Shown here: positions 17,160-35,129 of the stretch, one piece after another
How positions within the stretch are numbered: position 1 is the first letter of the stretch
How the letters are laid out: every line of letters begins with the position of its first letter
Assembly (NCBI GenBank): GCA_903813345.2
Contig: CAIIXF020000003.1
Span: 32,923,151-32,987,150, forward strand
DNA from: Owenia fusiformis
Lineage: Eukaryota; Annelida; Polychaeta; Sabellida; Oweniidae
Length of the DNA stretch: 64,000 nucleotides
Direction of reading: 5' to 3'
Notes under the pieces: generated by a model
The model's input: the letters and a program-made list of their open reading frames with translations, nothing else
Told to the model about the DNA's origin: nothing
Databases searched by the model: none
Translations under genes and position numbers: made by a program

Positions 17160-17349
17160 TTCACTGCAATTCAACTTTGTGAGGTTTTAGGCTTTTTGAT
17201 TGACAATATTTATGCAAAGTTTGGAAGTAAATTTTAACATCAAAATATATAGGAATACAAATGGGAACAGATCATGCTCCTCTTTTAGCAGACCTTTTTC
17301 TATTCTACAAATATAAATTTTTACAAAGGATGATGAAAGATAAAACTTA
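17160..17349 (+). pseudogene. Reverse transcriptase relic (Penelope-related), left part
   Basis: Translation gives LCEVLGFLIDNIYAKFG, then an in-frame stop and a one-base shift. It continues with GIQMGTDHAPLLADLFLF, which matches the G.PMGT..APLLADLFL motif of a widespread invertebrate reverse transcriptase family that I place tentatively near Penelope-like elements. The reading stops where a foldback element begins near 17,350. The matching downstream part resumes at 20,747. Confidence 0.7.
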
Positions 17350-18068
17350 AAGACCATATGCAGTATGGCAAGTGATTTTAGACAGTCATATCTTTCACCA
17401 TGACTACTTTCTGGGCATAAATTTAGTGGTCTTTATTAGAGCAATATGTTTTCTTTCAAGTGAAGTACCCATGATAATAAATATATCAATCGAACAATTT
17501 GTAAATCTATGAATAGGGACCCCATGTCAACATTTTTTTTCAAAATATTGAACCTATTTACTCAAAGAGGATCTCCTTTTTCTGATTTTTATTGCACGAA
17601 AAGATTATTCAACAAGGGGTCTAAAACATCTTCAAAAATAGAATGGTATTGAAAGTCTAGTTTTGAAGATATCAATTTTCAATGACCAAAATTATGCTGA
17701 AAACAATGGATAGCACAAGTTATCCCTATGGGAAAATAACATGGGATATGTTATTTTTAACTTTAACGCATTTCAATATGCATCACCTTTTCAGAAGTTG
17801 TTAATATAATGTAGAGGAGACTTTTGATATGTTTAAATTGAGAAAAACAAGATCCTCTTTTTAGAAAATAAGCCTAGCATTTTTTTTAAAGTGCCAAGGT
17901 GGGGCCCTAATTCATAATTTTTCAGAGAGTTCAATTGATATTTTACTATCATGGGGACTTCACTTGAAAGAAAACATATTGTTTTAATAAAAACCACTGT
18001 ATTTGTGACCAGAAAGTACTCATGGTGAAAGATATGACTGTCTAAAATCACTTGCCATACTGCACATG
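17350..18068. mobile_element. Foldback element with arms of about 240 bp
   Basis: The left end, CAGTATGGCAAGTGATTTTA.., is matched by ..TAAAATCACTTGCCATACTG at the right. The first 115 bp of the arms are strongly similar, and a diverged pairing continues inward (AGAGGATCTCCTTTTTCTGA against its counterpart near 17,850). The core is homologous to the element at 3,777. It interrupts the reverse transcriptase relic, and its right end is itself cut by the CAC-ended element at 18,069. Confidence 0.75.
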
Positions 18069-20725
18069 CACTGGGGATGAACTGGAAACGAGGGAGGTTT
18101 TGCCTCGTATCAAAATGGCGGGGCGTGAAAAAATTTCATTCGGTAAGATTTTTGTTTTTTACAATTTTCGTGCTTTTATCCTTCAAATTAAAACTTAATA
18201 TTTGGCAAGTAAATAGTTCATAAGTTCCGCTTTTATAATATGATTACAAATTAGAAATCAATACTGGCATTGCTGAGATATTTACATATCAATTCTCTCA
18301 CTTAGGAAACGAGGCATGTTTCTCAAGGAAACGAGGCAGCTACCATATATATGGTATATAGCATTCTTAAGAATGAAACGAGGCAACCATATTTAATTAA
18401 AAATTTTTTTTTTTATTACTAAACGGGGCCTACAAAAAGAAGCGTCCCTGTTCAAATGCTATTTCTGTAACACAGGAAACGACAACGTTGCTGATATTGT
18501 ATTCCATATGATGCAACAGACCCCTCCATTGGCAATATGTTGAAGCTTCCTAAAAAGCAAAAATGTTATGTTGAATAGGGAAGCAGATATAGACAGTTGT
18601 GAACAAAGCTTGCTTTTATTCTACCTTGAAACATCATTTATTTTAATTCACGATAGCGACATCATAATATTTATGCCATCGACCATTAACATTTTTCATA
18701 TGGCTAATAATCTAGAAAAGTTATGAATATTTCATTTACAAATGCATTACCATTTCTAGCATTTAAGAAAATACAAGGCATTAACATATGACACGTGTTA
18801 TAACTTAGTAATAACAAATAAGTCCATTTATTTGCTACCATTGTAACATATGTAGATAAGAAATACTTGAAAGTCATAATAAGTTTATAATTGTTCACAG
18901 TAAAATATGATGTCAGTCTAAGCGGTACGCATTTGTTCAGTTTTTGAAAGTTGCTAAAATTGCTAAATAATTTGCTATTGACGCAAAACCCCAGACGCCG
19001 AACTCCAGACGTCAGACGCCGAACATTTCCACATTTCGTTGGACTATATGCAGAATAACATAATTGATAGTGACATAATAAGGAACATACAGACATTAAA
19101 GAATACAAACAGTAAAATCCAATGTACACCAATGAGACAATGCCAGTCTGCTCCTTGACTCTGCTATTTTTGTAATATACGTAGGCGAGTCATTTAAACA
19201 GGCAATGCGCTTATTTTTGAAGGAAAAAGGACAAAATATTATTTGAGACATGTCACTCACACAGTCAATCAAATATGATAAAAACTTTAATTTGGGTCAA
19301 TACTGAAGTGAAAAGAAAATTACTCACATAGAAAACAGCATTTGAAGTCCAGAGATCAAAAGAAGTGAATTACCACTTTTCAAAAAGTGTATGTTTTTAA
19401 ATAACTCTTGGACTAAAAGATGGCGCATGGTTGAAAATCCTATCAAAAATGAATGGACAATTAATGCAAACAACAATGCCATCTTTCTATGGCATTGCTA
19501 AAAACTTGACATCTATAAATGGATAGATCAAAAATATTTTTTCATGATCTAGTGTCAACTCTGATGTGGTCTGTTTGAGCTGTTTTTGGTGTCAAATGAA
19601 AGATCAGGTACTTATTAATCCATTGGAAATACTATATGAAGATCAAAAGTGACTTCATTTACGCACTTTGTCCCTTTAATTATTACCATGGTCATTCGTT
19701 TTTTATCGTATCTGGAATTATACTCGTATTCTATCAAATATAGCCATCTCGAGCAACAACAATGCCCCATTTGCGTACGATTAGTAGGGAGGTTTAACGA
19801 CACATGTTTTAAAGAGAAGTGTACGTAAACGTGTAAAATTGCAATCTTCAGAGAACTAGTTCTTGTCTTCAACGTCTTTATTTGCATGAATGATTACAAA
19901 TGTATCAGTTAAACTGTTTTAATTGGGTCTTTGTATAAGTCAATCCAGAACGGAACTATAGTTCCCAGGGGTCATTTCACGTTTACGTTCGCCATTTCTA
20001 AAATACGTGTAGCTTAAGCTCCCTATTAAAATAGCACTTCTTTGAACGAGATTTTTCTTATTTGAGAGAACATTTTGACGATATATGCGCTACCATTGAT
20101 AGCTCGGATAGCTGGCTCGTTTATTGGAATTGACACTCAAAGCAATGCTATTTAACGTTTTCGAAATATTTAAAAATAAAACATTATAACTCCTTAGCAT
20201 AAATTTTAAGCTGCAGCAAAGAATGAATCGAGTGAAGTGCATTGGCATTTTCTGTACTTAAAGATGAACCTTAACAACATGTAGCTTAACTAAATTGGTA
20301 CAGTTAGACTTTTCTTTGCTCTTACATAATCATGTATATCGTGTAAAATGTAATCGGTCGTATGTGACCAGAACGGTGGAAATAAGATCATTAAATGTAG
20401 ACACTATCACAGAAAGAATAGTTGCCTCGTTGCAAGTCAAACATTGCCTCGTTTCATTGTTACAAAATGTAGACAGGTGCCTCGTTTCCTAAGTGAGAGA
20501 ATTGAAATGTAAATATCTCAGCAATGTCTGTATTGATTTCTAATTTGCAATCATATTATAAAACCGGAACTTATAGACTATTTACTTGCCAAATATTAAG
20601 TTTTAATTTGAAGGATAAAAGCACGAAAATTGTAAAAAACAAAAATCTTACCGAATGAAATTTTTTCACGCGCCGCCATTTTGATACGAGGCAAAACCTC
20701 CCTCGTTTCCAGTTCATCCCCAGTG
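18069..20725. mobile_element. 2.66-kb inverted-repeat transposon, CAC..GTG ends, 5-bp TSD ACATG
   Basis: The terminal inverted repeats are about 250 bp long and nearly identical. Both begin CACTGGGGATGAACTGGAAA. The element is flanked by ACATG at 18,064-18,068 and 20,726-20,730. Inside the termini lie several GAAACGAGGCA words in inverted orientation (18,305-18,390 and 20,425-20,480), likely transposase-binding repeats. The interior has no recognisable transposase. Its longest frame (minus strand, 18,704-19,132) resembles nothing known. It is therefore probably non-autonomous. The near-identity of the arms suggests recent activity or gene conversion. Confidence 0.85.
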
Positions 20726-20730
20726 ACATG

Positions 20731-21173
20731 GCCATTTCATATTGCAAAGTTATTTAATAAGACAGATAGATATATTGATGGCCTGTTAAGTTAAGACAAT
20801 CCTAAATTTAAAGATGTTGTAAATAATATATACCCTGTTGAGCTAGAGTTGAAAAAACCAGTGAATCTAACTTGAGTGTACCTTGTCTTTTACCTTCGAA
20901 TTAACATTGAACTAAACAATAGCATATTGTGTAAGTTATATGATAAATATCATGATCCATGATCTGACATGAAAAGAAATAATGTCTAACACCCCCTCCT
21001 CCTCCAATCGAGAACAAATAGACGATTTCAATTTTAATATTATGAATTTTCCGCATTCAAATAGCAGTTTTCCATTGGACCCAGTATCTCAGCTTATTAG
21101 ATATAGCAGGGCATGTTCAAAATATTTAGATTTTTTATGTGTACATATTCTTGGCTTTGCTGAAAAATACTAA
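20731..21173 (+). pseudogene. Reverse transcriptase relic (Penelope-related), right part
   Basis: Resumes with KLFNKTDRYIDGLLS, the catalytic RYIDDLLS motif with the second Asp changed to Gly. Then follow NNIYPVELELKKP, KLYDKYHD, DDFNFNIMNFP and SQLIRYSRACSKYLDFL, all typical blocks of this family. There are in-frame stops and a short insertion near 20,975. Dead element, older than both insertions that split it. Confidence 0.7.
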
Positions 21174-21325
21174 GGATGTCAGAATTGTTCAAGATTGGCA
21201 CTGAACTTCAAATTTCCTCACTTGGCACCTTTTTAGTTAGATCCAAGCTATGGTAGGAATGTTTGATAAATAGAAATCCAAACCAGTCTTAATTTTCGCC
21301 TGATGACCATTGTGAAATATTAAGC

Positions 21326-21477
21326 AAATATTTCATTCTATGGAGGGCAATACCTGTTCATCTTTCAATGATTTTTGCGGTATGTATTGCCCGCAGCCCG
21401 TAGGGCGAGGGAAATACATGATGCAAAAATCATTGAAAATGCAACAGGTATTGTCCGAACATATAATGAAATATTTG
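21326..21477. repeat. Inverted repeat around GGGCAATAC motifs
   Basis: Arms of about 53 bp (21,326-21,378 and 21,423-21,477) share AATATTTCATT, GGGCAATACCTGTT and TTCAATGATTTTTGC. The loop contains GTATTGCCCGCAGCCCGTAG. Confidence 0.65.
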
Positions 21478-21481
21478 TTTT

Positions 21482-21758
21482 ATTATATCATTGCTAGACA
21501 TTCCCTATGATCATTTATTTTAATCAATTAATATATCATTAATCCATAAGTGAACATAATTACGTACAAGTATCATTGAACGGTACACTTTATTTTCGTC
21601 CAGTGTAGTTGTCAGAATTCCCGGGCGGGCAATACGCCGGGCAATACGTCTTTTATTATCCTAAAATTGAGGGAGCTGTGAAATACGTTATGGTATTTTT
21701 GATCACATGGTACTGACTCGACCAATCAAATCACACAATTTCTAGCAATGATATAATA
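21482..21758. mobile_element. Small MITE with TTATATCATTGCTAGA termini
   Basis: TTATATCATTGCTAGACATT at the left is mirrored by AATTTCTAGCAATGATATAA at the right, giving a 277-bp element. It contains GGGCAATACGCCGGGCAATA, which echoes the inverted repeat just to the left, so the two may belong together. Confidence 0.65.
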
Positions 21759-22150
21759 TTGTGTTTTATGGATTACGGTGATGGTTTTGTAAATACAGTA
21801 GATGTGGACCCTTTGAAATGCCTTTGCACTTTGAGATTGGATTTTGTCTGTCCCACATCATTTGAGACTGAATTGTCTTGTATGAGTACCAGTATCTATA
21901 ACTGTATAATTCTAAATTTATTCTTTAATATGATTATATTGTAATGACCTCAGTCTGAATGAAATGTCCCTTGGTGTTATGATTTTGGAATGAGATGTTG
22001 GTACTTAAATGGTGGGGAGGGGGTATTAGACACAGTTTCTTTTTACGTTGGATTATGATTTGGGTGATTATGATATATTAACCAGAGAGATGAACTTACA
22101 TAGAACTATTTTAACACAGTATGGAGGGATTCCTTTACAGCAGCTCAGAA

Positions 22151-22262
22151 TGGTGACATATTGTTATGGTCTCCGTTTTTTGTGTTTGTGATGTTGGTTG
22201 GCGATTGGCAGTTGGCAGTTGGCATCTGTAACAAATTGTAGTGACATTTTGCATGTGATGCC
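22151..22262 (-). repeat. Dispersed repeat family 'TTTGTTACAGATGCC', copy
   Basis: TGACATATTGTTATGGTCTC ... GGCATCTGTAACAAATTG is the reverse complement of copies at 49,802-50,008, 50,366-50,501, 52,563-52,712 and 63,354-63,402. A partial copy lies at 31,785-31,872. Some copies end in a short TATGTCACCACTTC..GGTGGTGACATA-type hairpin. Confidence 0.7.
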
Positions 22263-22539
22263 TTTTTTCTTTAGCTGTGTTATGTAACCATTTTTGGTAT
22301 TTTTCCACTTTTGCATACCTGTTTTAGTGAACACCTGATTCTAATGAACACCTGTATCTTTTGGCACCCTTCCTCACTGCATTCTCAACTGACTTTTGTA
22401 AAAATTAACCTCTCATTAATGAGCATACAATAAACACAATTTTGTGGCTCCATAGGTGTTTAATGTACACACTTTACACTGCATGTCATTTACTCCATAA
22501 ATAAATAAATTCCATTTTAAAATTCATTGCTGATGATGT

Positions 22540-22695
22540 AATTTTGAAAATATATTTTTGAGTCAGCAGATGTGCATTATACTCATATAAATCAGAGAAA
22601 GTTGTAAATTCGTTCAGACACTGAAGTTCAGTTGAATATTCTTTATTTGCACATGGGACTTGATTGATTTTTTTGTTAGCCATCCCACTGTTTGT
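22540..22695. repeat. Segment duplicated at 35,130-35,300
   Basis: Shares ATATATTTTTGAGTCAGCAG, TTGAATATTCTT..TTGCACATGG and CACTGTTTGTTG in the same order and strand with 35,130-35,300. It lies just downstream of the second SMB gene, so the distant copy may mark a third, decayed duplication unit. Confidence 0.65.
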
Positions 22696-22794
22696 TGCAA
22701 CTATGGTTGGTAGATTTACTGTTTTATATTCATGCTAACTCTAACACAGGCTGCTATTTGGTATTTTCACTTTGAAAATTTTGCAGGAACGTCG

Positions 22795-22955
22795 GCATCT
22801 AAAAGATTCAGCACTGTTCCGGCAACGTTCCGGCACCGAAACCTTTCAACACCGAAATTTGGTTACGGACGAATCAGTCCATTTGGTGCTGAAACGGCAT
22901 CGAAATTTGGCACCAAAATGGAGTCGAAAATCAGATTGCATTTTAGGGGTTTATT
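22795..22955. repeat. GGCACCGAAA-rich dispersed repeat, copy 2
   Basis: Second copy of the repeat at 15,961. Contains TTCCGGCACCGAAACC and AAAATCAGATTGCATTTT. Confidence 0.65.
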
Positions 22956-23503
22956 ATCTTGCATTTGCTGTTCATGAGCAACCCATTTGGCTTATTAGAA
23001 ATGATTATGTTATTTGTTTTTTATTTGTCTGTTCCCTATTAATGGTTTATTAAATGACTGTTAGATGTTAATAAGGTACTTTCAAAAATATTCTAAACAA
23101 TACAATTAGACAAACAGAGTATCTTATGCATTTCTAGAGGTTAGGTATAGTAGAGTGTATAAGGGAAATGGTGCATGTAAAAGCCTATTTATGGGGATGG
23201 TATGTCATGCGTAACATATAACAGATGTAAGTAAGCAGTGGGTTACTATGGCAACAGAATATTTAACACAAAATTTATTTCACTCAATTTCAAAGTATTT
23301 TATTTTCACTTTTCATTACATATATATAACTATAAAGTTTATGACACCAAGAATGGTATATGATGACCCATAATTATCTCAAATAATGTTTATACATGTA
23401 CAAACATGTAGCAAGTCAACTATTCAAGAAGATATCACCCTCTATTACCACTATTGTACTTTTACCTTATCAAATCAGACATCCAACAATTTAAGAAAAT
23501 GTC

Positions 23504-25084
23504 TTACAGTACAAATGTCATTACTATGATTGCAATAAACACTGGCCAGATGAATCCACCTGAGGCTGAGGTTGTACTGTTTTTCTTATCTAGAATTGTT
23601 TCTGGATTGTTTACTTCTGAGGGCAGTATCTCATAAGTCATATTCATCTCAGACAAGTCTCCCTCCTCTGCTTGCATTACAAATGTCTCATATTTAGTTC
23701 TCATATTTCTATGGATCTCAAGATTTGTTGCATTACCAGGGAATGAAACATTGAAACTCATTATAAATGTGTTTTGATTAACGTCGGGAGATTTAATATG
23801 ACAACTACAATCTATATAACCTGTAGGAATGAATGTGTCTTGGAGAAGATTCTCCATAATCTCGATTTGCTTGGTCGCTCCTATTTCCAATACCGTTGTT
23901 CTTAAAATGGTATGCACTAATTTCCCTTTCATGACACACCTTTCCCCATTTTTCATATAACCATCAGGGCAAGCCACTGCAATACAGCTTGATTCAGTTT
24001 TGCATTCAAGTTCAAACCCAACACTTTGAATTCCCGAAGATGAACGGACATTGAGACTTCTTTTGTTATCTACAGAAATATCAACTAATATTTGAAATGA
24101 GAACAATTTAAATTCTGCTGAATTTCTGTACCCCAGACTTATTCGGCAAGCTTGTCTATTATAATCAGTGGGGTTGGCACAGAACCAACAGAACTTGTTA
24201 TGGTACACAACCCCAGGGGAAGGATTAGGGTCATCTGTTGGAGCTTGAACAGGGTGAAGCCCAGATGTTGCGCAGAGCTTACTCAATGTTTTATTGGCGC
24301 AGCTAGGGCATTCATACTCAGTAGGCAAACAGCTTCGCACACGGGCATAATTTGGTGCTATAAACCTGAAGAAACATGACTTCGAAGTGAGAATCTTTTT
24401 AATGAAGTTCATATCTAGATTTTTCACATCATGGTCTGTTAAGATTTTCTTTTCACATACTGTTTCTATTTCCCACAGTTTTGGCTCTTTCACATTGTTA
24501 CATCTTGCACAGTCAATATTCTTGTAGACAACACCTGTTTCTGGATCTACAGCTGGGGTCTGAGGCATAATTTCATCATTATCATGTTCTGGAATTTTAC
24601 ACGAGACCTCCAGGTGTGATCCATGATGGGCCGAATCACAACTAGATATCAGATACACAAACATAGTTCCGTTTATCACTACACATTCATATTTGTCTCT
24701 GTCACTGTTATCTATGTTTAGTATCTTTGTTCCATTCTTCAAAATATTTGAACATGATTCAGTAAAATCTGAGCAGCAATCACCGTAATGAAAGCAATCT
24801 AGATCGCAAGAACATTGCCCCGTACTGCCACAGTTATTTTTGCAAGAAAGACTATCACAAAACATTGGTGTTTCATGGTTTTTCCAATTGGGATGCCCTT
24901 CTTTGCAAGCTCTTTCTGCTAGGGAATTGCTGGTACTCTTTTTGGGGATCATTTCTCCACTTTGTAAATTGCTTCTTGATGATGATGGTGCAGAGCGTAA
25001 GTAAGTTGCTTCGTAAGTTGTCATGAGTATGTTGAGTAATGTGTTCAGCAGAACAAAATGTCCGTTCATTGCAGCGAGAAGCAT
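23504..25084 (-). CDS. Secreted somatomedin-B ectodomain protein, copy 2 (intact), probably GPI-anchored
   Basis: The coding sequence is one exon of 526 residues from the ATG at 25,084. The frame extends upstream only to a TTG at 25,120, which is not a plausible start. An acceptor (TTTCGTAG|GACTGG) suggests a 5' UTR intron. Residues 1-25 form a signal peptide (MLLAAMNGHFVLLNTLLNIL). Around residues 70-115 is a somatomedin-B-type cysteine set (CKNNCGSTGQCSCDLDC, then YGDCCSDF and ESC). Two CxxC modules follow (NIDCARCNNV, NKFCWFCANP), with many Cys pairs and N-glycosylation sites (NMT, NVS). The chain ends STTSASGGFIWPVFIAIIVM plus four residues. A small-residue cluster followed by a hydrophobic tail fits a GPI signal. 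The ectodomain resembles those of invertebrate adhesion-type GPCRs, but no seven-helix domain follows. Copy 1 stops at the same codon with a different stop triplet, so this end is genuine. Ligand and role are unknown. Confidence 0.8.
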   Translation of the reverse strand: MLLAAMNGHFVLLNTLLNILMTTYEATYLRSAPSSSRSNLQSGEMIPKKSTSNSLAERACKEGHPNWKNHETPMFCDSLSCKNNCGSTGQCSCDLDCFHYGDCCSDFTESCSNILKNGTKILNIDNSDRDKYECVVINGTMFVYLISSCDSAHHGSHLEVSCKIPEHDNDEIMPQTPAVDPETGVVYKNIDCARCNNVKEPKLWEIETVCEKKILTDHDVKNLDMNFIKKILTSKSCFFRFIAPNYARVRSCLPTEYECPSCANKTLSKLCATSGLHPVQAPTDDPNPSPGVVYHNKFCWFCANPTDYNRQACRISLGYRNSAEFKLFSFQILVDISVDNKRSLNVRSSSGIQSVGFELECKTESSCIAVACPDGYMKNGERCVMKGKLVHTILRTTVLEIGATKQIEIMENLLQDTFIPTGYIDCSCHIKSPDVNQNTFIMSFNVSFPGNATNLEIHRNMRTKYETFVMQAEEGDLSEMNMTYEILPSEVNNPETILDKKNSTTSASGGFIWPVFIAIIVMTFVL

Positions 25085-26055
25085 TTTGATTGTGTTTGAG
25101 TTGTTGATTGTCCCTCTCAAGCCAGTCCTACGAAATCATAAAATCATGCAATTTTACTAATTTGTGAACTTGAGGTAAACGTATACGGGCATTTTCTGTA
25201 CTGTAATTTGATCATAAGTAGAAAGTTGAAGGGATGGAAATGTGTTTAATGTAAGTTTCAAAAAAATTGTTATACATGTAATTTATTTGCTCTTATCCAG
25301 TATCAAGATTTACTAGTCAGGATGCCCCTTTTTCAATTTTAGTGAATTTATTAATATTTTTGCTCTCATCTTTTTTTCAGAAAATAGAAACAGATCACAA
25401 TGAACACATTGTGATGATTCTTGAAAATATTGCTTCTATTTTTTTCTTTCTTTCCCTTTCAATTGCTTTCAAATAAGGTCACTGCTATAACCAATCACAA
25501 AATCCAAACTTGAAATATGGAGGAAATATCTTTTTATAAGGGATTTGAGCACCTTTAAGATCATTGCCATACTGAAATAAAATTATGAAAGAATACTGAA
25601 ATGAAAAAATAAAGTGAAGATAAAATGTACACCATCTAAGCCATTTAAAGTGTCTTTGCGATGCTCATGGGGTCAAATTTCAGTTTATACATGTTTTAAA
25701 TGAAGTAAACACCACTTAAAAGTCATACCATATACCGTTCTTGTAAATCTTTCTATAAATGTGAAATTTGATGTTCAAAATCGGGAACCCAATGTCAAGT
25801 GCCAATCATGACATCACGATCAGAACAGTTTTGAACATGTTGCTGGAGTTTATGATCTCCGAACGTGCTTATAAAGTGTCAGTGTAATTGATTGCCACTG
25901 CATTCAATGCAGTGCGGAAATGATTCAGCTTTGACTACTTTTGAGTCACGATTTTTCCTCCGATGAGCGAAACATATAATACCTCAATTAGAGCTCCCGA
26001 CCCTGTGGTGCGTTTTCACAAAGCTAGTCATGCAGAATTACGTTCTGGCCAGTCA

Positions 26056-26593
26056 CACTGCTACCCACCTAATTACACAGACGTATCGTCGGTGTATCAT
26101 GGCAGAACTTCCTCCGGGACTAGGTTTCGGTTAGATTTTTTTATTTCCCGATTTACACCTACTTATAAGTCACGTTGTGGATAATAATTTGGCTCGAAGT
26201 TAAGGAAGATAGTCTAGTTTGAGAATGTGTCGATGGTTTTAGGTTTTATAAGTTAACAAAGACACAATTCACGTATTTAGTCCCTCGCTTTTCTTACACT
26301 GACGATCGGCATTAATATTGCCAATATTACACTGATATTGGTGTCGTCAGTGTAAGAAAAGCGAGGGACTAAATACATGAATTGTGTCTTTGTTAACATA
26401 TAAAACCTAAAACCATCGACACATTCTCAAACTAGACTATCTTCCTTAACTTCGAGCCAAATTATTATCCACAACGTGACTTATAAGTAGGTGTAAATCG
26501 GGAAATAAAAAAATCTTACCGAAACCTAGTCCCGGAGGAAGTTCCGCCATGATACACCGACGATACGTCAGTGTAATTAGGTGGGTAGCAGTG
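26056..26593. mobile_element. Near-perfect 538-bp palindromic transposon, CAC..GTG ends, 5-bp TSD AGTCA
   Basis: Almost the whole element is two arms of about 240 bp that differ at only a handful of positions, around a centre of about 50 bp near 26,325. The ends are CACTGCTACCCACCTAATTA and its reverse complement. AGTCA flanks it at 26,051-26,055 and 26,594-26,598. Subterminal words ACACTGACGA / TCGTCGGTGTA recur four times. Removing the element and one AGTCA gives a site that resembles the sequence at 26,716-26,750 (TCTGGCCAATCAGAACACAG), which supports precise insertion. No coding capacity. Shares GTATCA..ATGGCGG and TCGGTAAGATTTTT with the 18,069 element. Confidence 0.85.
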
Positions 26594-27469
26594 AGTCAGA
26601 ATACAGTATAGAAACTATACATGTTGAGTTGATCCTGTTACATAACTCAATGCTGTTTAAAATCTTACAACCAAAAGGCATTGAACCATGGGGGGATTTT
26701 GAGAAGCGTTACTCCTTTCTGGCCAATCAGAACACAGTATAACATGAAAACTTTTGAATTTACATTAGAGTTGCATAACGCATTGCCATTGCTGATTAAA
26801 ATCCATAACCGGGTCTGATCGTGACTTCATGTTTTTTGTGGGAAATCTTATTTTGGCACTGAAAGACAATCAGATGAAGATGTGAGTCTGTTGGTATACT
26901 GTTTGTACCAACCAATACCCATTGAATCTTTTTGTGTAAAGAAAAATAAATGGAAATTACCGAATTAGCACTTTAAGGTTTGTTTATGAACCCTACTTGA
27001 TATTAGACCCTTTGATGAATCCTCTACTTTAGATCATAAAATCTTCAAAACTTATCACTACTTAAATTTGAAAACCATTAATTTGTCAGTCTATGTCAAC
27101 ATTTTCTTAGAATGCAGTTTATTATTTATTAAAAAAATATACTTGCCAGATAAAATCATCAGTTATTATCTTATTTTATATTACTTATAAGGCTCAGGAG
27201 TTGAAAATATGAACCTGTTTGTTTCTGATGGTCCTTTGAAGCATTCATTTCATCTGTTGTCATCGGTCATGCTAAGCAGCTTCGAGAAGTATTCTAGATT
27301 TGAGTTCTGTTATATATCTGAAATATCTGTTTTACAGGGTGATGTAAAAGTAAAGTTTAGCATGAAGTAAAGTTTAAATGTACGATGTACAATGAAAAAG
27401 TTTTAATATGAAAACTCAGTTTAATGAAAATATCTTCTAGTATCGTGGTAGTTTAGTATGATATTAAAT

Positions 27470-27600
27470 ATATGATATGAGTGCGAAATGTTGGATATGA
27501 GTGGAAAAATATGGGGTTTGAATGGAAAATATGGAATATAAGTTGAAAAATGTGGAGTATGAATGGAAAATATGGGATATGATTTGAAAAATATAAAAAT
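27470..27600. repeat. Tandem repeat GGATATGAGTGGAAAAATAT, about six imperfect units
   Basis: Units of 21-24 bp with the frame (G)GA.TATGA.TGGAAAA.ATG. A related run occurs at 16,170-16,210 in unit 1 of the duplication. Minus-strand open frames across it are composition artefacts. Confidence 0.65.
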
Positions 27601-27953
27601 TTGCATAGTATGGATTTAATATGATATGGAACTTAAAAATTTGATTTGCAGTACCATTAGTTCTGGAACAATAATATAAGACAGACATCACAGTGCTTGG
27701 CCGATGAACACGTCTTGTTATTAGTCACGTGTACGGTATAGACCAATAGGAGAGTGGGGAATATGACAGTGATATAATAATGGTTATTTATTATATATTA
27801 GAGGAATCAATACTTATAAAACTAATCGAAGAATAATAGTTTGTATATATTTTTGTAAAAAAGAGGACTCTTCAAAAAGTCTTCATGTGTATAGATACCG
27901 AGGTAAATCATTTTTGAATTTAAAAAATATTTGAACATTATTAAAATAATTTA

Positions 27954-29114
27954 CAGGGTGGTCCAAAAAAAGTGAACCCCTGCAACTGGCCATATTTCCC
28001 TTATTACTTGTAGGAATTCTTTTTTATTTTCACATGTTGTAGAGGAAGATCTAAAATTTATGTTGGTACCACACATTTTTCTTAGTCTTAAAATTTGCAG
28101 AAATTATAAGCCCTTGTAAAAGGGTAGGAGGTCCTATCAAATTATGGTCCTACTCTCCATTGATTTATATGGTGACCTAAATACAACTCTTTCCCTCATT
28201 ATCTTATACACAATTAGGGCCAGTAAGGGCCGTTAAGAAAGGGGACCTTAATCCCCGGGGGACCATCATTTCTTTAAACCTAACCAAATATTACTGAAAA
28301 TGGACAAATTGTGATTTTCAATATCCGCGATTCTTCAACCCTTTAACACATTTCCCCTGAGAATTTTTAAGCTGCAGTCTTAAAGAACTAATATTTTCTG
28401 ACTTTGTTCAATTTTAAATCCTGCACATTTTGGCTTAAAACTAGCATCCTACATTTGTTAGTTGCAAAGTTATTGTGATCCAAAGAGATGTGCTAAGCTT
28501 CCACAGACGAAAACATTTTCCAGTGAAATCATGAACATACCCCTATATGATCTTGAAATGTCAATATCTTCATAAATCATGAACCAATTCTAATAATATA
28601 TGGCTCAAAACATTGAACATTGGATTTTCTTTTGATTTTTAAAGATATTTGATGAAGGGGTTATCAGATTCCTGGTCACAGGGGGCAACTTCCTTCCATA
28701 AGAGGCCCCCTCTAATTGTTGGTGTAGGTAACATACCCCTGAACTGTTGAACAGTTAAAAATGCTTCAAAATGATCAATGAAAGTGTGAAATGTGTTTTC
28801 TGCTTGAATAGTGTCCCCTTTGTCATATTGTAGGGTTTTAATCTTGTATCTCTAACTGAAAGCTGTTTAAGATCATCCAATGTGTTTCAACAATTTCCGT
28901 GAATCACATTTGTAAAATTTTGTACAATATCTAATTTCCAGGCATGTTTGTTAAAAGCTTGTAATTTCTTCAAAATTTAAGACTGGGAATAAATTATGGC
29001 ATCAACCAAAATTTTAGACCTTTCTCTACAACATGTGATAATATGAGCCAATTCATGCATGTATTAAGAAAAATGTAGCCTGTTGCAGGGGTTCACTTTT
29101 TTTGGACCACCCTG
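27954..29114. mobile_element. Mariner/Tc1-type non-autonomous element, TA target site
   Basis: Starts CAGGGTGGTCCAAAAAAAGT and ends with its reverse complement. The outer 40 bp of the inverted repeats are nearly perfect. Similarity continues about 170 bp inward (CACATGTTGTAGAG, TCTAAAATTT, AGTCTTAAA). It is flanked by TA on both sides. CAGGGTG termini with TA duplication are typical of the IS630/Tc1/mariner superfamily. No transposase frame is present. Confidence 0.8.
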
Positions 29115-29339
29115 TATATATGTGTCCTGGAGTCAAGCAATGTAGTTGAAAGAAGGACCACTACATTTGTCATGTGAAATCTGGTCGCATTTTGTGACGG
29201 TTTGAGTGCTTTCAGGCGGAATGTGAACTGGCATGTAAAATGTGTTGGTTACTCTGTATACCCAGGAGCACAGGTGGTGTTTCTGCTTTGTTAATCAAAG
29301 GCCCCAATCAGTGATCAAAGAAATAATTAGGAATCAATT

Positions 29340-29590
29340 GCGAGTAGGTATAGTTATCAGTTTCACCACCAATTGGCTCATTCGGGTCAGATAGCATGGC
29401 GGGTATAGTAGAAAGTTCCCTTTAACTTAAATATTCATCTGTTTTTGTGGTTCAATTTTCATATTACCCTGTTCTATCTAATAGTTATGCAAATTAAAAT
29501 ATGTCCAGTTAACAAAAATGTTATCTGTCCAATACGAGAAAAGATATTTCACTTTTTGTGATTTTATAACATGGGGTCTATGGGGAATCT
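29340..29590 (+). repeat. Three-copy dispersed repeat, copy A
   Basis: GTTTCACCACCA.TTGGCTC and GGGTCAGATAGCATGGC.GG, then AGAAAGTTCCCTTTAA and a segment to TTTTGTGATTTTATAACATG. It recurs inverted at 35,999-36,228 and in the same orientation at 63,822-64,000, where it runs off the window. Confidence 0.75.
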
Positions 29591-29973
29591 CCCCGAACTA
29601 GAAGTCACATTTTTAAAAAATCAAATATTAAAAATTGACAAACAAAATTCGAAATCATATTTCCAGATGTAATTTTACATGTAGATTACACATATGACAT
29701 TGCTTTGACTGAATTCTGGATATTTAATGACGTAAATCAAGATTATTTATACTCGCATCTAGTCAATTAATTAATATTCACATAATGATGATGCACCACA
29801 AAAAGGTTACGCTTATATCGTTACATACTATGTAATTCTACTCCAGGTCTGATGATGATGTTTTTGGATTCAGATAATTAACTATTACCGTGCTGCCTTA
29901 TTTTTGCCATTTTATCCTACGCATCTGAGTTATTCTTAAGAGTGCAAAACAATTTATAAAAACACAAGAAAAC

Positions 29974-31340
29974 ATGCAGACTTTAATATCCAAGATAATG
30001 TATTTTCAAATCTTATCTAACAACATCATTTGTGTATTTTCCAAACTTCTTGAAAAAGTAATGCACTCAAGAATTTCTAAATTTATCAAAAATAATAAGT
30101 TAATGAATGAAAAACAATTTGGATTCAAAGAAAACAACTCAACATACATGGCTCTTTTAACTTTTCTGGAACAAATTCGGTTTTCAATGGATAATAATAA
30201 GCATATTCTAGGATTGTATTTAGACCTATCAAAAGCGTTTGATACGATTGACCATACAATATTATTAAATAAACTTGAACTGTTAGGTTTTCGTGGAGTA
30301 GTGTTAAATTGGTTCAAAAGTTACTTAAAAGATCGACCATTAAAAACTTTCATATCAGGTTCATACTCTGATGAAGAGCATTATTTACATTGTGGCGTCC
30401 CCCAAGGATCTGTTTTGGGACCAGTCCTCTTCACATTGTATATAAATGATATATTTAATGTTACCAATATGATAAAATTAGTTATTTTTGCAGATGACAC
30501 AAATATTTCTCTAGAAGATGACAACTTAGATAATCTTTACTTGAGGGCAAACACTGAAATAAAATGTATAATCAACTGGCTAAAAAACAACAAGCTTTCA
30601 CTCAATATAGAGAAAACTAAATATATGTTATTTACTAAATCAAGACTTAATAATATAAATAGCCATCACTACAAGGTATATATTGGTGATAACCAGATTG
30701 AAAGAGTTAACTATATAAATTTTCTTGGTGTAATCATTGATGCAAATCTGAAATGGAATAGGCATACTGAATATATTGTTTCAAAAATTTCAAAAATAAT
30801 AGGCATTCTTTTCAAAGTAAGAAATAAACTATCAAGACATGCATTTACTATTCACTTGTTTATTCACATATTTTGTATTGCAACATCATATGGGGTAATG
30901 CCAACAAATCATTACTTACACCATTACTTAATCTTCAGAAAAAAGTTGTAAGACTGATTTGTAATGCAGATTATCAACAATCTAGTGTACCATTATTTAG
31001 GGAAATGAAAATCTTAACAATTTTTGACATTCACAGGTTAGAGAAATCAAAATTTATGTATAATTGTGTCAAGGAACCATCAAATTTTCCTGCTTATCTT
31101 TTCAAAAACTACTTTACATACATGCACAATCATAATGTTGGTAATCGTACTACAAGACAGTTTCATAATATACTCCCCAGCAAAATAAAAACTGAATTGA
31201 CAAAAAGATCAGTGACATATTCTGGTGCTATTTTATGGAATTCTTTGCCAATTGTATTTCGAACATGTAAAACTTTGAATTCTTTTAAACACAACATTAA
31301 AAAGGACCTTTTGGAAAAGATGAATGGAAATACTATATAA
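29974..31340 (+). pseudogene. CR1/Jockey-group LINE reverse transcriptase fragment, frameshifted
   Basis: The first frame (29,974-30,951) carries the finger and palm motifs FSKLLEKVMHSRISKFI, KQFGFKENNSTYMAL, YLDLSKAFDTIDH, CGVPQGSVLGPVLF and the catalytic FADDTN. A second frame (30,873-31,340) carries the typical LINE tail, with LQKKVVRLICNADY and SGAILWNSLP. A frameshift near 30,865-30,950 separates them. There is no endonuclease or first open frame upstream, so the copy is 5'-truncated. The 3' flank runs to an AAAT-rich tail at 31,548-31,586. Confidence 0.85.
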
Positions 31341-31547
31341 GATCACATTCCATTTAAATTAATTATTTATATCCAGACTTCAAAGTTTCTGTATTGCATC
31401 TAAACAATTTAGATAATGTATGTTATACTGTTATATATTATATGTTTTGTGATTGCTCTGCAATAATTTTTGATATATGCACTGATACGCCCAATTACTA
31501 AGGGTGTCGAGTGCACATGCTTTGTACATTCCATTGTTATATTATCA

Positions 31548-31586
31548 TGAAATAAATAAATAAAAAATAATAAATAAAAATAAATC
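31548..31586. repeat. (AAAT)n 3' tail of the LINE
   Basis: AAATAAATAAATAAA-type run about 210 bp after the LINE stop codon, as expected for the 3' end of a CR1/Jockey-group insertion. Confidence 0.6.
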
Positions 31587-31784
31587 ATATTGAATTTGAG
31601 AGCTGATCTCTCAACATCATTTTTCGAAAATAAAATCAGCGATATCACAGTAAATATGCGGTCTCTTCTCTTGTTGTAGTCTATTGTGAATTGAGGTTCA
31701 TTTGAAATACTGAGATATTATTCATAATTTGGTTGAGATTTAACACTGTTAACTAAGTGTAAATATGAAAATTTATTGTTTTTA

Positions 31785-31872
31785 TGTCACCATCAAGAAG
31801 TGGTTACATATTATTATGGTCTCCATTTTTTGTGGCAGTGGTTGGAGGTTGGCGATTGGTGGACGGCAGTTT
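31785..31872 (-). repeat. Dispersed repeat family 'TTTGTTACAGATGCC', partial copy
   Basis: TTACATATTATTATGGTCTC and TTGGCGATTGGTGGACGGCA align with the copy at 22,151, but the GGCATCTGTAACAAAT end is missing. Confidence 0.55.
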
Positions 31873-31979
31873 GGGTCCCAATTCTTAAAACTTCCAATAA
31901 TAATACTGTTTAGACTGACTTCAGTTTTTCCAAATCATCTACAAGTTTTCAGAAGTTCAATTCTGACTTTACATTTAAG

Positions 31980-32210
31980 ATTTGACCTTCAATGACCTTT
32001 GCAAGGTCAAAAAATGTTAAAAAAGGTCAAAAAGGTATTTTTTCAACTTGCTTCAAATTGAACAATTTTTTTTCTAAATCATCTTCAAGTACTCAGAAGT
32101 TCAAATCTGAATTTGGATTTAAGATTTGAACTTTAATGACCTTCTCAAGGTCAAAGAAAGGTCAAAAGGTCTTTTTTTCAACTTGCTTCAAATTGACCTT
32201 TTGCGATCAG
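31980..32210. repeat. Tandem repeat rich in TGACCT/AGGTCA
   Basis: Two units of about 125 bp share GATTTGA.CTT.AATGACCTT, AAGGTCAAA, TTTTTTCAACTTGCTTCAAA and TTGA. A third, partly rearranged block lies at 32,715-32,945. AGGTCA half-sites are frequent, including TCAAGGTCA, the sequence bound by ERR/SF-1-type nuclear receptors. This is probably a property of the repeat rather than a selected enhancer. Confidence 0.7.
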
Positions 32211-32465
32211 AATTCAGGAATTTTGTTTATGGATACTGTTGTCATGTATTTCCTCTTATTGGTGTGACGTCATATAGAAATGATATTAAACATGATGGAA
32301 TAACGAAATGGCGGACACGTGGCAGTTTTGAGCTAAAAATATTGTTGTTTCTTTTTCGAAAACCATGGGTCGGATGTTTACCAGGTATGCCGATTTGACT
32401 AGATCATGAGAATATCTATATTTGTGCGAAGTTTGGATGAAATTCATACTAAACATTGATGCCTA

Positions 32466-32503
32466 TAAGCGCCCCCGTTTTTGTCAAAATCGGGGGGCGC
32501 TTA
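32466..32503. repeat. GC-rich hairpin
   Basis: AAGCGCCCCCGTTTT and AAAATCGGGGGGCGCTT can pair to form a stem of about 15 bp with a very short loop, in otherwise AT-rich DNA. Confidence 0.5.
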
Positions 32504-32714
32504 ACCGCTGTCTAAATCATGTCAGTAAGATCTTAGACTTGGTATGTGGTTAGCATGAATGTTGATCTAGTCAACTCGAACGCTTTCGTGAAAAACTAAA
32601 TCAATAAAACACGAAATATAGAAGATAATCTCTCAAAATCAAACATCTAAAGCTTGTTGGCCTAATTGTGACATCACTACAAGATAGAATCCATCCGGTG
32701 ATCGCAAATCATCA

Positions 32715-32945
32715 ATTGACCAATTCTTTTCAAAATCACCTACAAGTTCTCAAAAGTTTAAATCTGACTATAGATTTGACCTTCAATGGCATTCCCAAGG
32801 TCAAAAAGATTTGACCTTCAATGGCATTCCCAAGGTCAAAAAGATTTGACCTTCTCAAGGTCAAAAAGGTCTTTTTTTAAGTTTCTTAAAATTGACCAAT
32901 TTGTTTTCAAAATCATATCCAGAATTCTCAGAAATTCAAATCTGA
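32715..32945. repeat. TGACCT/AGGTCA repeat block with internal 35-bp duplication
   Basis: Third block of the repeat at 31,980. GATTTGACCTTCAATGGCAT..CCAAGGTCAAAAA is present twice in direct succession. Confidence 0.7.
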
Positions 32946-33365
32946 CTTAACATGTGAATTAATGATATTGTGAGCAACAAGGTGGCGGCATTTTGTCATG
33001 TTAATGCCTTGTTCTATCTTACTCGAAAAATACTCACACCTTGATTTTACAACATCAACCGTGAATGCCTTGTGACGACTATCCCCCGTGAGGAAGGATA
33101 TTAGATGGTCTTTATTAGTGATGAGATAATTTTTAATAGCAGGAAAGAATATTAAGATTATCACAAATGTGACTTAGACCTGGGAATCCTTAGAAAATGA
33201 CCCAACAAAACTGATTGATATTTTGCCAGATTATCCCTCTGGAAGGCCTACTCCAACTATGAGCTGTGGTCGTAGTCATCAGATATATGTAAGACTCAGG
33301 CCTGTAAACTATCATGCTTTTGCTGAAGAAATTGAAGTCAAGCCAGTTTTTTTAGTGACAGAATA

Positions 33366-34464
33366 CACGATGCCCATGTCAAGCAGCGTGCCTACTAGGC
33401 ACGCAGTTTGAAACTCTGACAAACTGCGCGCATATTTCAAAATATGAGACGGGGAGGACACGACTCCCAAAAAGAGCCAAAATACGAAAAATACAAGGTT
33501 AGTCTCGTTCTAAAGATAGTACCATTCTGTGAAGATGAACTTAATTTACTCAAAGTACTCAATGTTTTTCCCGATGTAAACCTAGTTATCTCAATATAAG
33601 GGTCTTAAGTAACTTCTGTGTTCAAAATTTACAGTGTAAAGTTATATCTATGTCTTTTTATCGTCATTTGCCGTTTATTCAGCCATTGTGTCTGTGTATG
33701 CTAGAATACATAGGATCACTCCATCTGATTAAAAAAAGTTTGTGTTCAAAACATTAATACGCCATAAACGTGATTTAAACATTTTTCTTGTCAAACTGCG
33801 CGCCTATATTCACATGTATTTCCCAAACTGCGTGCCTAATATTTCTATATAACTGCTTGCCCATCCAAGCTTGTTTTGATTTTATTAGAAAACATAATCG
33901 CCATACAAGGCACATGTGTCTAATAGTAGAACCCCATAATTGAAACACTATGAGAGTCCATCCACCAAGATGGTGATCTGAAAATAAAAGTTTTCCAAAG
34001 CTACATGAAAAACACCTACACGTGCCTCTGTAGAAATTCCAATGATAATATGTAGTTTTAATAGTGTATGCGCACAGTTTGTAATTTCTGGCTAAAATAG
34101 GCGCGCAGTTTGTGATTTATTTCTTTTTAATCTCCTGATTATCTGTTTTATCTCGAAATATTTCGAATTATACATGATAAATGTGTAAGGAATTAAATAT
34201 AAAACGAGTCTAAAGTATTTGTCATTTATGTTTAAAGTGCTAGATCGATTCATTTGCACATAGTTTTTGCTAGTATTTGCAAGATTCGTATATTCGCCAC
34301 AGAATGAACGCATTGAACAAGAAAACAATGCAGGATAAATGTCTTTAAATTACGTTTCAAAATACAGACTCCAACTTAAATGATGCAATGTTCTTAGGCA
34401 CGCAGTTTGTGATCGAAACAAACTGCGCGCCTAAGTAGGCGCGCACCTTGACATGGGCACCGTG
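33366..34464. mobile_element. 1.10-kb transposon, CAC..GTG ends, 5-bp TSD GAATA, GCGCGCAGTTTG repeats
   Basis: Ends CACGATGCCCATGTCAAG and, at the right, the reverse complement of CACGGTGCCCATGTCAAG. The inverted repeats span about 67 bp. GAATA flanks it at 33,361-33,365 and 34,465-34,469. The word (G/A)CGCAGTTTG or its complement recurs about ten times, concentrated at the ends (33,400-33,435 and 34,400-34,440) with more near 33,795, 33,825 and 34,105. The ends resemble an RSS-like heptamer (CACGATG). Interior frames are short and unrecognised. Confidence 0.8.
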
Positions 34465-34573
34465 GAATATGTCATGCAAATACACATTTTTTCTGATTTT
34501 TCTCAAGCAAAAATATTTTGGGAGAATAACATTAAAAAACGAATGCCGTTGGTCAGAAGTTTCAAGTGAATTA

Positions 34574-34791: not shown

Positions 34792-35058
34792 AAATTTCCA
34801 ATGAACATGCGTGACATTTACGGGATTCGCGTGACAAATCCGAACAAATTGCGTTCGTTTTTTTCCGACGTTCGTATTTTTACCGTATCATAAACATATT
34901 TTGAAAAATCTTTTACAGAAACATATTTGCGTGACAATTACCAGGTAAAATGCGTATTTGCGTGACATTTTGTGTCACGCAAAAAAAACTGGCGTGACTT
35001 CAAATTCTTCAGCAAATGCGTGACAAATACGCAAATTGCGGGACAGTTGACAGGCCTG
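34574..35058. mobile_element. hAT-like element with GCGTGACA repeats and G30 tract
   Basis: Termini CAGGGCTGTCAACT and, inverted, CAGGCCTGTCAACT, flanked by GAATTA on both sides. hAT elements usually make 8-bp duplications, and only 6 bp match. Inside, four to five units of about 31 bp carry (G/A)AACACCTTTGGCCAA. A run of G follows, and then at least six copies of GCGTGACA. No transposase frame. Confidence 0.6.
34761..34790 (+). repeat. Homopolymer of 30 G
   Basis: Thirty consecutive G. It could fold into G-quadruplexes, and the true length may differ because such runs are hard to sequence. Confidence 0.9.
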
Positions 35059-35129
35059 GAATTACATATATGTCACGCATTTGATTCAAATTTTTGCATG
35101 CAATTGTATAACTACTTTCTGCTCGTGAT

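What the first reader, a model, noticed from the sequence alone, without database searches (positions are those of the whole stretch)
18069..34464. Three CAC..GTG elements with 5-bp target duplications: a Transib/ProtoRAG-like signature
Seen: elements at 18,069-20,725, 26,056-26,593 and 33,366-34,464 each begin CAC, end GTG, and have a perfect 5-bp direct repeat at both edges (ACATG, AGTCA, GAATA). Known: Transib and ProtoRAG transposons have CAC-starting ends and 5-bp duplications, and the RAG recombinase derives from this group. The third element's first seven bases, CACGATG / CACGGTG, look like an RSS heptamer. Inference: these are non-autonomous members of one or more RAG-related families mobilised by a transposase elsewhere in the genome. 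Alternatives: CACTA/Chapaev-type elements also start CACTG but make shorter duplications.
Basis: partly seen in the sequence, partly recalled or inferred. Interest (0 to 1): 0.85.

Follow-up and report, generated by a model that had tools for sequence, protein, structure and literature searches.

The report
Three orphan CAC-ended transposon families
The window holds three kinds of small, recently active DNA transposon that share one insertion signature and rely on an enzyme encoded elsewhere; the proposed tie to the antibody-gene recombinase RAG is possible but not shown.

Summary
E1 (18069-20725), E2 (26056-26593) and E3 (33366-34464) each run CAC...GTG inside a perfect 5-bp duplication. In 71 copies with both ends (window copies included), 63 have a 5-bp duplication, 5 have 6 bp and 3 neither. 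The joined flanks of E3 match a relative in the window that lacks E3. They are multicopy, non-autonomous cut-and-paste families, E2 and E3 very young; no transposase gene was seen in the copies read. E1 and E2 share a splice-donor-like block at the same distance from their ends.

The RAG interpretation is only partly supported. CAC and the predominant 5-bp length fit RAG-like and Transib elements. Against it: the rest of the ends does not fit the published protostome RAG-like consensus, there is no RSS nonamer, targets are AT-rich, and no RAG1-like/RAG2-like pair was found (searches that cannot prove absence). The genome carries RAG1-related transposases of a Chapaev-like and another kind, with different ends; two Chapaev-like copies show 4-bp duplications. 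No autonomous partner was found. The mobiliser is most likely a DDE transposase of the CACTA-Mirage-Chapaev-Transib supergroup; hAT5-like or an undescribed lineage remains open.

The parts
18064..18068 (.). left target-site duplication of E1, ACATG
18069..20725 (+). E1, non-autonomous CAC...GTG element, 2657 bp with about 250-bp terminal inverted repeats; element positions about 1130-1606 look like extra sequence: in the matches listed they are hit only by the window copy and by two places that match that stretch alone
18069..18323 (+). E1 left TIR arm (partner 20471-20725), with AAACGAGGCA-type repeats
   Evidence: motif count on the family consensus
18115..18142 (+). E1 exon-like block: ATG to phase-1 splice-donor-like site (ATGGCG...TTCG|GTAAG), repeated in the right arm at 20652-20679 (-)
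   Evidence: sequence; donor block shared with E2; coding role inferred
20471..20725 (-). E1 right TIR arm
20726..20730 (.). right target-site duplication of E1, ACATG
26051..26055 (.). left target-site duplication of E2, AGTCA
26056..26593 (+). E2, fold-back MITE: arms 26056-26305 and 26344-26593 (98% complementary) around a 38-nt loop
26099..26129 (+). E2 exon-like block (ATGGC...TTCG), also on the right arm at 26520-26550 (-); this window copy has GTTAG at the left donor-like site, the right arm and the consensus have GTAAG
   Evidence: coding role inferred
26594..26598 (.). right target-site duplication of E2, AGTCA
33361..33365 (.). left target-site duplication of E3, GAATA
   Evidence: relative without E3
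33366..34464 (+). E3, CAC...GTG element (1099 bp; family consensus 1258 bp) with 18-bp ends that match at 17 bases, and CAAACTGCGCGCC-type repeats near the ends and inside
34465..34469 (.). right target-site duplication of E3, GAATA
34919..35071 (-). inverted relative of the E3 flanks that runs through the insertion point without E3

Best explanation
E1, E2 and E3 are three multicopy, non-autonomous families of cut-and-paste DNA transposon, E2 and E3 very young. A DDE transposase encoded elsewhere recognises CAC...GTG ends, probably together with family-specific repeats near them, excises the element, and inserts it at AT-rich, roughly palindromic sites with a 5-bp (occasionally 6-bp) stagger, which becomes the duplication. 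E1 and E2 keep what looks like the first coding exon and splice donor of their parent gene in both inverted-repeat arms, so they are probably inverted-end derivatives of related autonomous elements. The parent enzyme was not found; the supergroup that joins CACTA/EnSpm, Mirage, Chapaev and Transib (CMCT, to which RAG1 also belongs) is the most likely source. Shown: repeated insertion with fixed ends and duplications, copies, low divergence, no transposase in the copies read. Inferred: exon, repeat recognition, DDE chemistry, supergroup.
For: 63 of 71 copies with 5-bp and 5 of 71 with 6-bp duplications; a site without E3 in the window. The first look named 753 E2, 633 E3 and 1228 E1 candidates, of which 40 each were scored; 164 E1 ends found with a 29-base pattern at up to 2 mismatches, 0 for the reversed control. 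Mean divergence from consensus 0.8% (E2, 21 copies) and 1.0% (E3, 21 copies); E1 mean 6.3%, median 3% over 25 rows, inflated by variable interiors (L041, L048, L061, L062 left out). A five-sequence CMCT profile of the catalytic frame found nothing better than E 1 in frames of 25 aa or more in the E1-E3 copies and the window, nor in frames of 20 aa or more in L085-L101. Family-specific motifs, both strands: E1 11 and E2 4 sites (up to 1 mismatch), E3 8 sites (up to 2), against shuffle means of 0.115, 0.035 and 0.005. E1 and E2 share TTCGGTAAGATTTTT at exactly the same offset, score 33 against a maximum of 26 in 500 shuffles. CMCT is described as having mostly CA..TG ends and 2-5-bp duplications (PMC12730594, passages). 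Of 63 sites, C precedes the duplication in 35 and G follows it in 35.
Against: No autonomous partner with these ends. 6-bp duplications lie outside the 2-5 bp quoted for CMCT. Repeated motifs near the ends are, from recall, at least as typical of hAT as of CMCT. E3 shares no block with E1 or E2 above chance, so a single enzyme lineage for all three is an assumption; the E3 consensus puts a stop right after its ATG. Part of the E1-E2 shared block is a T run. The profile covers the catalytic frame, not N-terminal exons (it missed those of L098), so it could miss remnants.
Confidence: 0.5

Rival explanations
1. RAG-like (ProtoRAG/RAGL) or Transib proper: the elements are cut by a RAG1-like transposase at heptamer-like CAC ends.
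For: CAC...GTG in the copies printed with one exception (L025, CAT), and 5-bp duplications in 63 of 71; E3 ends CACGGTG/CACGATG resemble the heptamer; autonomous Transibs are said to be present typically in one or a few copies (PMC4411706, passage), so missing one is not surprising; non-autonomous RAGL elements are known in an oyster (PMC7204232, passage).
Against: RAGL consensus beyond CAC not met; no nonamer (ProtoRAG lacks a true one too); AT-rich duplications where Transib targets are GC-rich (recalled, not found in a paper here); 6-bp duplications; no RAG1 or RAG2 match of weight, with the caveat that the control genomes did not ring either.
Confidence: 0.2
2. hAT elements of the 5-bp/6-bp kind (hAT5, hAT6).
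For: hAT families with 5-bp and with 6-bp duplications are described (PMC12730594, passage), which would explain the 5/6 mixture; hAT transposases are plentiful here, 138 matches to PF05699; repeated motifs near the ends are hAT-like (recalled).
Against: hAT ends usually read CAG or TAG (recalled), not CAC; none of the 100 listed E1 ends lies within 15 kb of a listed hAT match.
Confidence: 0.15
3. The local Chapaev-like transposases move them.
For: 72 matches, 14 of them in stop-free frames of at least 656 aa; one such element begins CACTGGGCC, close to E1 CACTGGGG; a half E2 lies beside Chapaev-like N-terminal exons.
Against: Two single copies with clear ends have 4-bp duplications, ACTT and AGCC; a third, GGGG(G), could be 4 or 5. 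blastn at E 1e-3 of E1-E3 against ten transposase loci gave one weak match, outside the element. The half E2 breaks at the palindrome centre, and no second E2 end was seen in 4.7 kb. Repeat content does not separate them: the commonest 9-mer in the 350-bp ends occurs 2, 4 and 3 times in three Chapaev-like elements against 7 (E1), 4 (E2) and 4 (E3).
Confidence: 0.1

Closest known systems
RAG-like (RAGL/ProtoRAG) and Transib transposons
   Same: CAC ends, predominant 5-bp duplication, non-autonomous copies known
   Different: rest of the end sequence, no nonamer at RSS spacing, AT-rich targets, some 6-bp duplications, no RAG1L/RAG2L found
Chapaev and other CACTA-Mirage-Chapaev (CMC) elements
   Same: CAC...GTG ends (also stated for CMC MITEs in PMC6004678, passage); the genome has many Chapaev-like transposases
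   Different: shorter duplications (2 bp in the CMC MITEs, 4 bp in two local elements) instead of 5-6
hAT5/hAT6 elements
   Same: 5-bp and 6-bp duplications; repeated motifs near the ends (recalled for hAT)
   Different: CAC instead of the usual hAT terminal bases (recalled)
Fold-back MITEs in general
   Same: E2 is a nearly perfect palindrome; 40 of 40 scored places match it at 96-100%
   Different: carries an exon-like block in both arms

Membership tests
RAGL/ProtoRAG/Transib | first three bases CAC on both ends | tested here: met
   three elements and the copies printed; one E3 copy (L025) has CAT
RAGL/ProtoRAG/Transib | 5-bp target-site duplication | tested here: met
   63 of 71; but 5 of 71 are 6 bp
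RAGL/ProtoRAG/Transib | TIR beyond CAC fits protostome RAGL consensus CACTWMCAAACKTYKBB (PMC7204232) | tested here: not met
   6/14 (E1), 6/14 (E2), 2-3/14 (E3)
RAGL/ProtoRAG/Transib | RSS nonamer at 12 or 23 spacing (a feature of RSS; PMC8289069 says ProtoRAG TR5 is unlike it) | tested here: not met
   6 of 9 and 5 of 9 on the two E2 ends at spacing 12, otherwise 0-3
RAGL/ProtoRAG/Transib | partner encodes RAG1-like (and RAG2-like) protein | tested here: inconclusive
   PF12940: three marginal matches at E 1.1-1.2; PF03089: none; controls silent
Chapaev | 4-bp duplication (recalled; 4 bp in two local Chapaev-like copies) | tested here: not met
Chapaev | transposase of that family between such ends | tested here: inconclusive
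   none found in the copies read
hAT5/hAT6 | 5-bp or 6-bp duplication | tested here: met
hAT5/hAT6 | hAT transposase between such ends | tested here: inconclusive
   no listed hAT match within 15 kb of 100 listed E1 ends; 64 E1 ends and the E2/E3 ends not compared
non-autonomous TIR DNA transposon (MITE-like) | TIRs, duplications, many near-identical copies, no coding gene | tested here: met

The most novel reading that the evidence does not exclude
E1-E3 belong to an undescribed branch of the RAG1-related (CMCT) transposases that keeps the CAC...GTG ends and 5-bp stagger of RAG but works without RAG2, binds family-specific repeats near the ends instead of a nonamer, prefers AT-rich palindromic targets, and starts its gene with a tiny exon inside the inverted repeat.
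Probability: 0.2. Interest if true: 0.6.

Novelty: new member of a known kind. Interest (0 to 1): 0.33.

Why it matters
Non-autonomous transposons are ordinary. If their enzyme proved RAG1-related, they would be a recent, multicopy record of a RAG-like reaction, and would show how end recognition and target choice vary in the group from which V(D)J recombination came. They also warn that CAC ends with 5-bp duplications are not enough to call an element RAG-like.

Tried and rejected
Autonomous partner of E1: the end-to-end pairs longer than 3.0 kb among the 100 listed ends were read (L041, L061-L070; L068 and L069 leave out about 700 bases that match E1), with L048. Their extra length is, by eye, LINE, LTR-retroelement and unassigned sequence; an RVT_1 match in L061 is weak (E 0.0057). 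No CMCT transposase was seen. Nine single-ended E1 copies were sampled over 1.5 kb inside, plus one E1 and three E3 copies whose matches broke off: no transposase of the CMCT kind; retroelement frames in L095, L096 (by eye) and L097 (gag, E 3.1e-6). 64 of the 164 E1 ends were not listed by the tool and not examined.

Autonomous partner of E2: patterns that run past the palindrome loop and exclude the known second arm gave 4 hits and 1 hit. L098 and L099 are half E2 copies. L100 and L101 were fetched only on the side past the loop and show no transposase frame. The last hit, L102, is an E2 with a shortened arm. L098 has Chapaev-like N-terminal exons beside its half E2; I read it as a nested insertion in a transposon-rich stretch, because no second E2 end was found in the 4.7 kb fetched.

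P0001 (L075, 726 aa) was considered as the mobiliser and rejected: two copies end CATATCGAGATTTT and show no duplication outside those ends.

E1 uninterrupted site: inconclusive. IS481EU was considered because of mixed duplication lengths and dropped: its lengths are about 4, 15 or 25 bp and the related Banshee starts TGT (PMC10045372, passages).

Full report
What was checked. The three elements were read base by base. All begin CAC, end GTG, and sit between perfect 5-bp repeats ACATG, AGTCA and GAATA. A scan for CAC...GTG pairs 300-4000 bp apart with at least 11 of 15 matching terminal bases and a 5-bp repeat returns exactly these three pairs; 20 shuffled windows gave 8 chance pairs in total, so the pattern on its own is suggestive rather than proof. 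The window lies in a 498-Mb assembly of 525 contigs of an unnamed organism, by its introns and size a eukaryote.

Other copies. Each element was used as a query on that genome. The first look named 633 (E3), 753 (E2) and 1228 (E1) candidates, of which 40 each were scored. A 29-base E1 end pattern, up to 2 mismatches, found 88 forward and 76 reverse ends, against none for the reversed control. I fetched 20 copies of each and ten stretches holding longer E1 copies, two of which (L068, L069) are parts of one copy and were left out of the count. In 71 copies, the window's included, 63 have a perfect 5-bp duplication, 5 a perfect 6-bp one and 3 neither, each of these one mismatch short by eye. Ends drawn at random from different copies match over 5 bp in 0.77% of 20,000 draws. 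The joined E3 flanks align, for about 49 bases past the junction, with an inverted relative at 34919-35071 that lacks E3. E1 sits at the outer edge of a repeat arm whose partner (17349-17485) matches through the duplication but for only 6 more bases, 4 of them identical, so for E1 this test is inconclusive. It was not tried for E2.

What kind of thing. Mean divergence from consensus is 0.8% for E2 and 1.0% for E3 (21 copies each), so these amplified recently. E1 has a mean of 6.3% and a median of 3% over 25 rows, with rows up to 34% where variable interiors were forced together. E2 is a fold-back, 250-nt arms around a 38-nt loop; E1 has 255-nt arms at 96% and a variable interior. E3 has 18-bp ends that match at 17 bases and weaker inverted similarity inside; its consensus is 1258 bp. 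Each family carries its own repeated motif: AAACGAGGCA at 11 sites in E1 (up to 1 mismatch; 10 of them in the outer 310 bases of either end), ACACTGACGA at 4 sites in E2 (a palindrome, so two independent sites), CAAACTGCGCGCC at 8 sites in E3 (up to 2 mismatches; 5 near the ends, 3 inside), against shuffle means of 0.115, 0.035 and 0.005. By exact 9-mers in the ends, only E1 stands clearly above three Chapaev-like elements (7 against 2-4; E2 and E3 have 4; same call). No copy read contains a CMCT transposase by a five-sequence profile of the catalytic frame; the longer E1 copies hold, by eye, LINE, LTR-element or unassigned insertions. The profile does not cover N-terminal exons and missed those of L098, so small remnants could be overlooked.

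A shared gene start. E1 and E2 share TTCGGTAAGATTTTT at the same offset, base 71 from the end; the alignment, partly a T run, scores 33 where 500 shuffles reach at most 26. Upstream each consensus has an ATG, at bases 47 and 44, giving stop-free first exons of 28 and 31 nt, both ending in phase 1. I infer a short first coding exon and splice donor left over from the parent transposase gene, now present in both arms. E3 shares no such block above chance and its consensus has a stop straight after the ATG.

Target choice. Over the 63 copies with 5-bp duplications, C precedes the duplication in 35 and G follows it in 35; duplication positions 1 to 5 are A/T in 48, 55, 45, 49 and 48 of 63. G+C is 22% in the duplications, 35% in the flanks, 34% in the window. 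Transib and RAG are recalled to prefer G+C-rich targets; I did not find this in a paper.

Is it RAG-related? For: CAC, the 5-bp length, and the heptamer likeness of E3 (6 and 5 of 7; E1 has 5 of 7, E2 4 of 7). In PMC7204232 (passages) protostome RAGL ends begin CAC, have the consensus CACTWMCAAACKTYKBB and invariably 5-bp duplications. Against: beyond CAC the ends fit that consensus at 6 of 14 positions (E1, E2) or 2-3 of 14 (E3); the RSS nonamer is not at 12/23 spacing (best 6 of 9, one E2 end), although PMC8289069 (passages) says the ProtoRAG TR5 block shows little similarity to the nonamer as well; 5 of 71 duplications are 6 bp. PF12940 (RAG1) gave no match at E 0.001 and three at 1.1-1.2 when the limit was raised; PF03089 (RAG2) gave none at E 1. 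The tool states that silent controls mean absence is not shown.

RAG1-related enzymes in the genome. The three marginal RAG1 matches led to P0001 (L075, 726 aa): Pfam RAG1 at E 0.0022, 16.6 bits against a cut-off of 25. All 15 PDB matches better than E 0.1 are RAG1, best E 8.3e-4 for the whole sequence; of the two aligned stretches the one around the last acidic residue has an independent E of 0.5, and the one with the C..C pair only 20. The assignment thus rests on weak scores and on motifs. Its element ends CATATCGAGATTTT and shows no duplication outside those ends in two copies. P0001 in turn found, at E 1.6e-5 and weaker, a second kind, with an N-terminal CxxC zinc finger (zf-AD; PF12560 RAG1 importin-binding region at E 2.4e-4 in one case, below cut-off) and DUF1280 (E 7.9e-17 in L079). 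A query with one of these gave 72 matches from 68 scored of 188 candidates, 14 in stop-free frames of at least 656 aa. Two copies with clear ends have 4-bp duplications (ACTT, AGCC), a third is ambiguous, and the ends begin CACTGGGCC, CACATGCC and CACAGTACTG; ends of L080, L081 and L083 were not settled. This fits Chapaev. PMC4411706 (passages) places Chapaev, Chapaev3, Transib and TransibSU in one superfamily and describes an N-terminal 'Chapa' zinc finger shared with RAG1, so calling these Chapaev-like is a judgement from motifs, ends and duplication length, not from a tree. Length and ends make them unlikely, but not excluded, mobilisers of E1-E3.

Search for the autonomous partner. Long E1 pairs, single E1 ends, broken-off E3 copies and two exclusion patterns for E2 all failed. 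None of 100 listed E1 ends lies within 15 kb of a listed hAT or RAG1-related match (positions typed); 64 E1 ends and the E2 and E3 ends were not tested this way. Stretches withheld from the assembly and the fetch limits leave room for an unseen partner.

Conclusion. Three families of orphan non-autonomous transposons are well established. Their enzyme is a DDE transposase by inference, and CMCT by the CAC...GTG ends and short duplications (2-5 bp quoted in PMC12730594, passages; CAC...GTG for CMC MITEs in PMC6004678, passage). The specific RAG/ProtoRAG claim is not excluded but fails the end-sequence tests I could run, and hAT5/hAT6 (PMC12730594) explains the 5/6-bp mixture about as well. Literature searches for 5-bp-duplication elements and for RAG-like elements (listings only, often the top 12-20 of many) showed no title or abstract describing these families; that is a limited search.

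Noticed in passing
L075:2149-4326 (+); L074, L076: P0001, a 726-aa RAG1-related transposase with stop-free copies at C1 and C8, 96.6% identical over 5.4 kb; element ends CATATCGAGATTTT without an evident duplication outside the ends (an ATAT duplication is possible if the ends lie a few bases further in).
   Followed up: partly
L079, L080, L081, L082, L083, L084: Chapaev-like transposons with an N-terminal zinc finger weakly like the RAG1 N-terminal region (zf-AD, PF12560) and DUF1280; 72 matches, 14 in stop-free frames of at least 656 aa.
   Followed up: partly
L098:1-278 and 475-2053; L099:4422-4701: Half E2 copies broken at the palindrome centre, one beside Chapaev-like N-terminal exons and a nested mariner-like frame (by eye); fits instability of long palindromes.
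   Followed up: partly
17355-18068: Inverted repeat (127-nt arms, 91%) directly left of E1; its right arm ends exactly at the E1 duplication.
   Followed up: partly
3620-4326: Another inverted-repeat element, ends GGTTATCGCAAACAA (15 of 15), with a possible 6-bp direct repeat TACGTG.
   Followed up: no
12974-14419 (-) and 23507-25135 (-): Two similar long open frames with a weak Somatomedin B match (just below the Pfam cut-off), apparently a local gene duplication.
   Followed up: no
29929-30948 (+): Reverse-transcriptase frame (PF00078, E 2.7e-34) between E2 and E3, LINE-like by eye.
   Followed up: no
38639-40276 (-): 546-aa open frame without a Pfam match at E 0.01; from memory it looks like a Mab-21/cGAS-like nucleotidyltransferase, untested.
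   Followed up: no
58209-59260: Tandem array whose frames repeat phrases such as [10 protein letters not shown].
   Followed up: no
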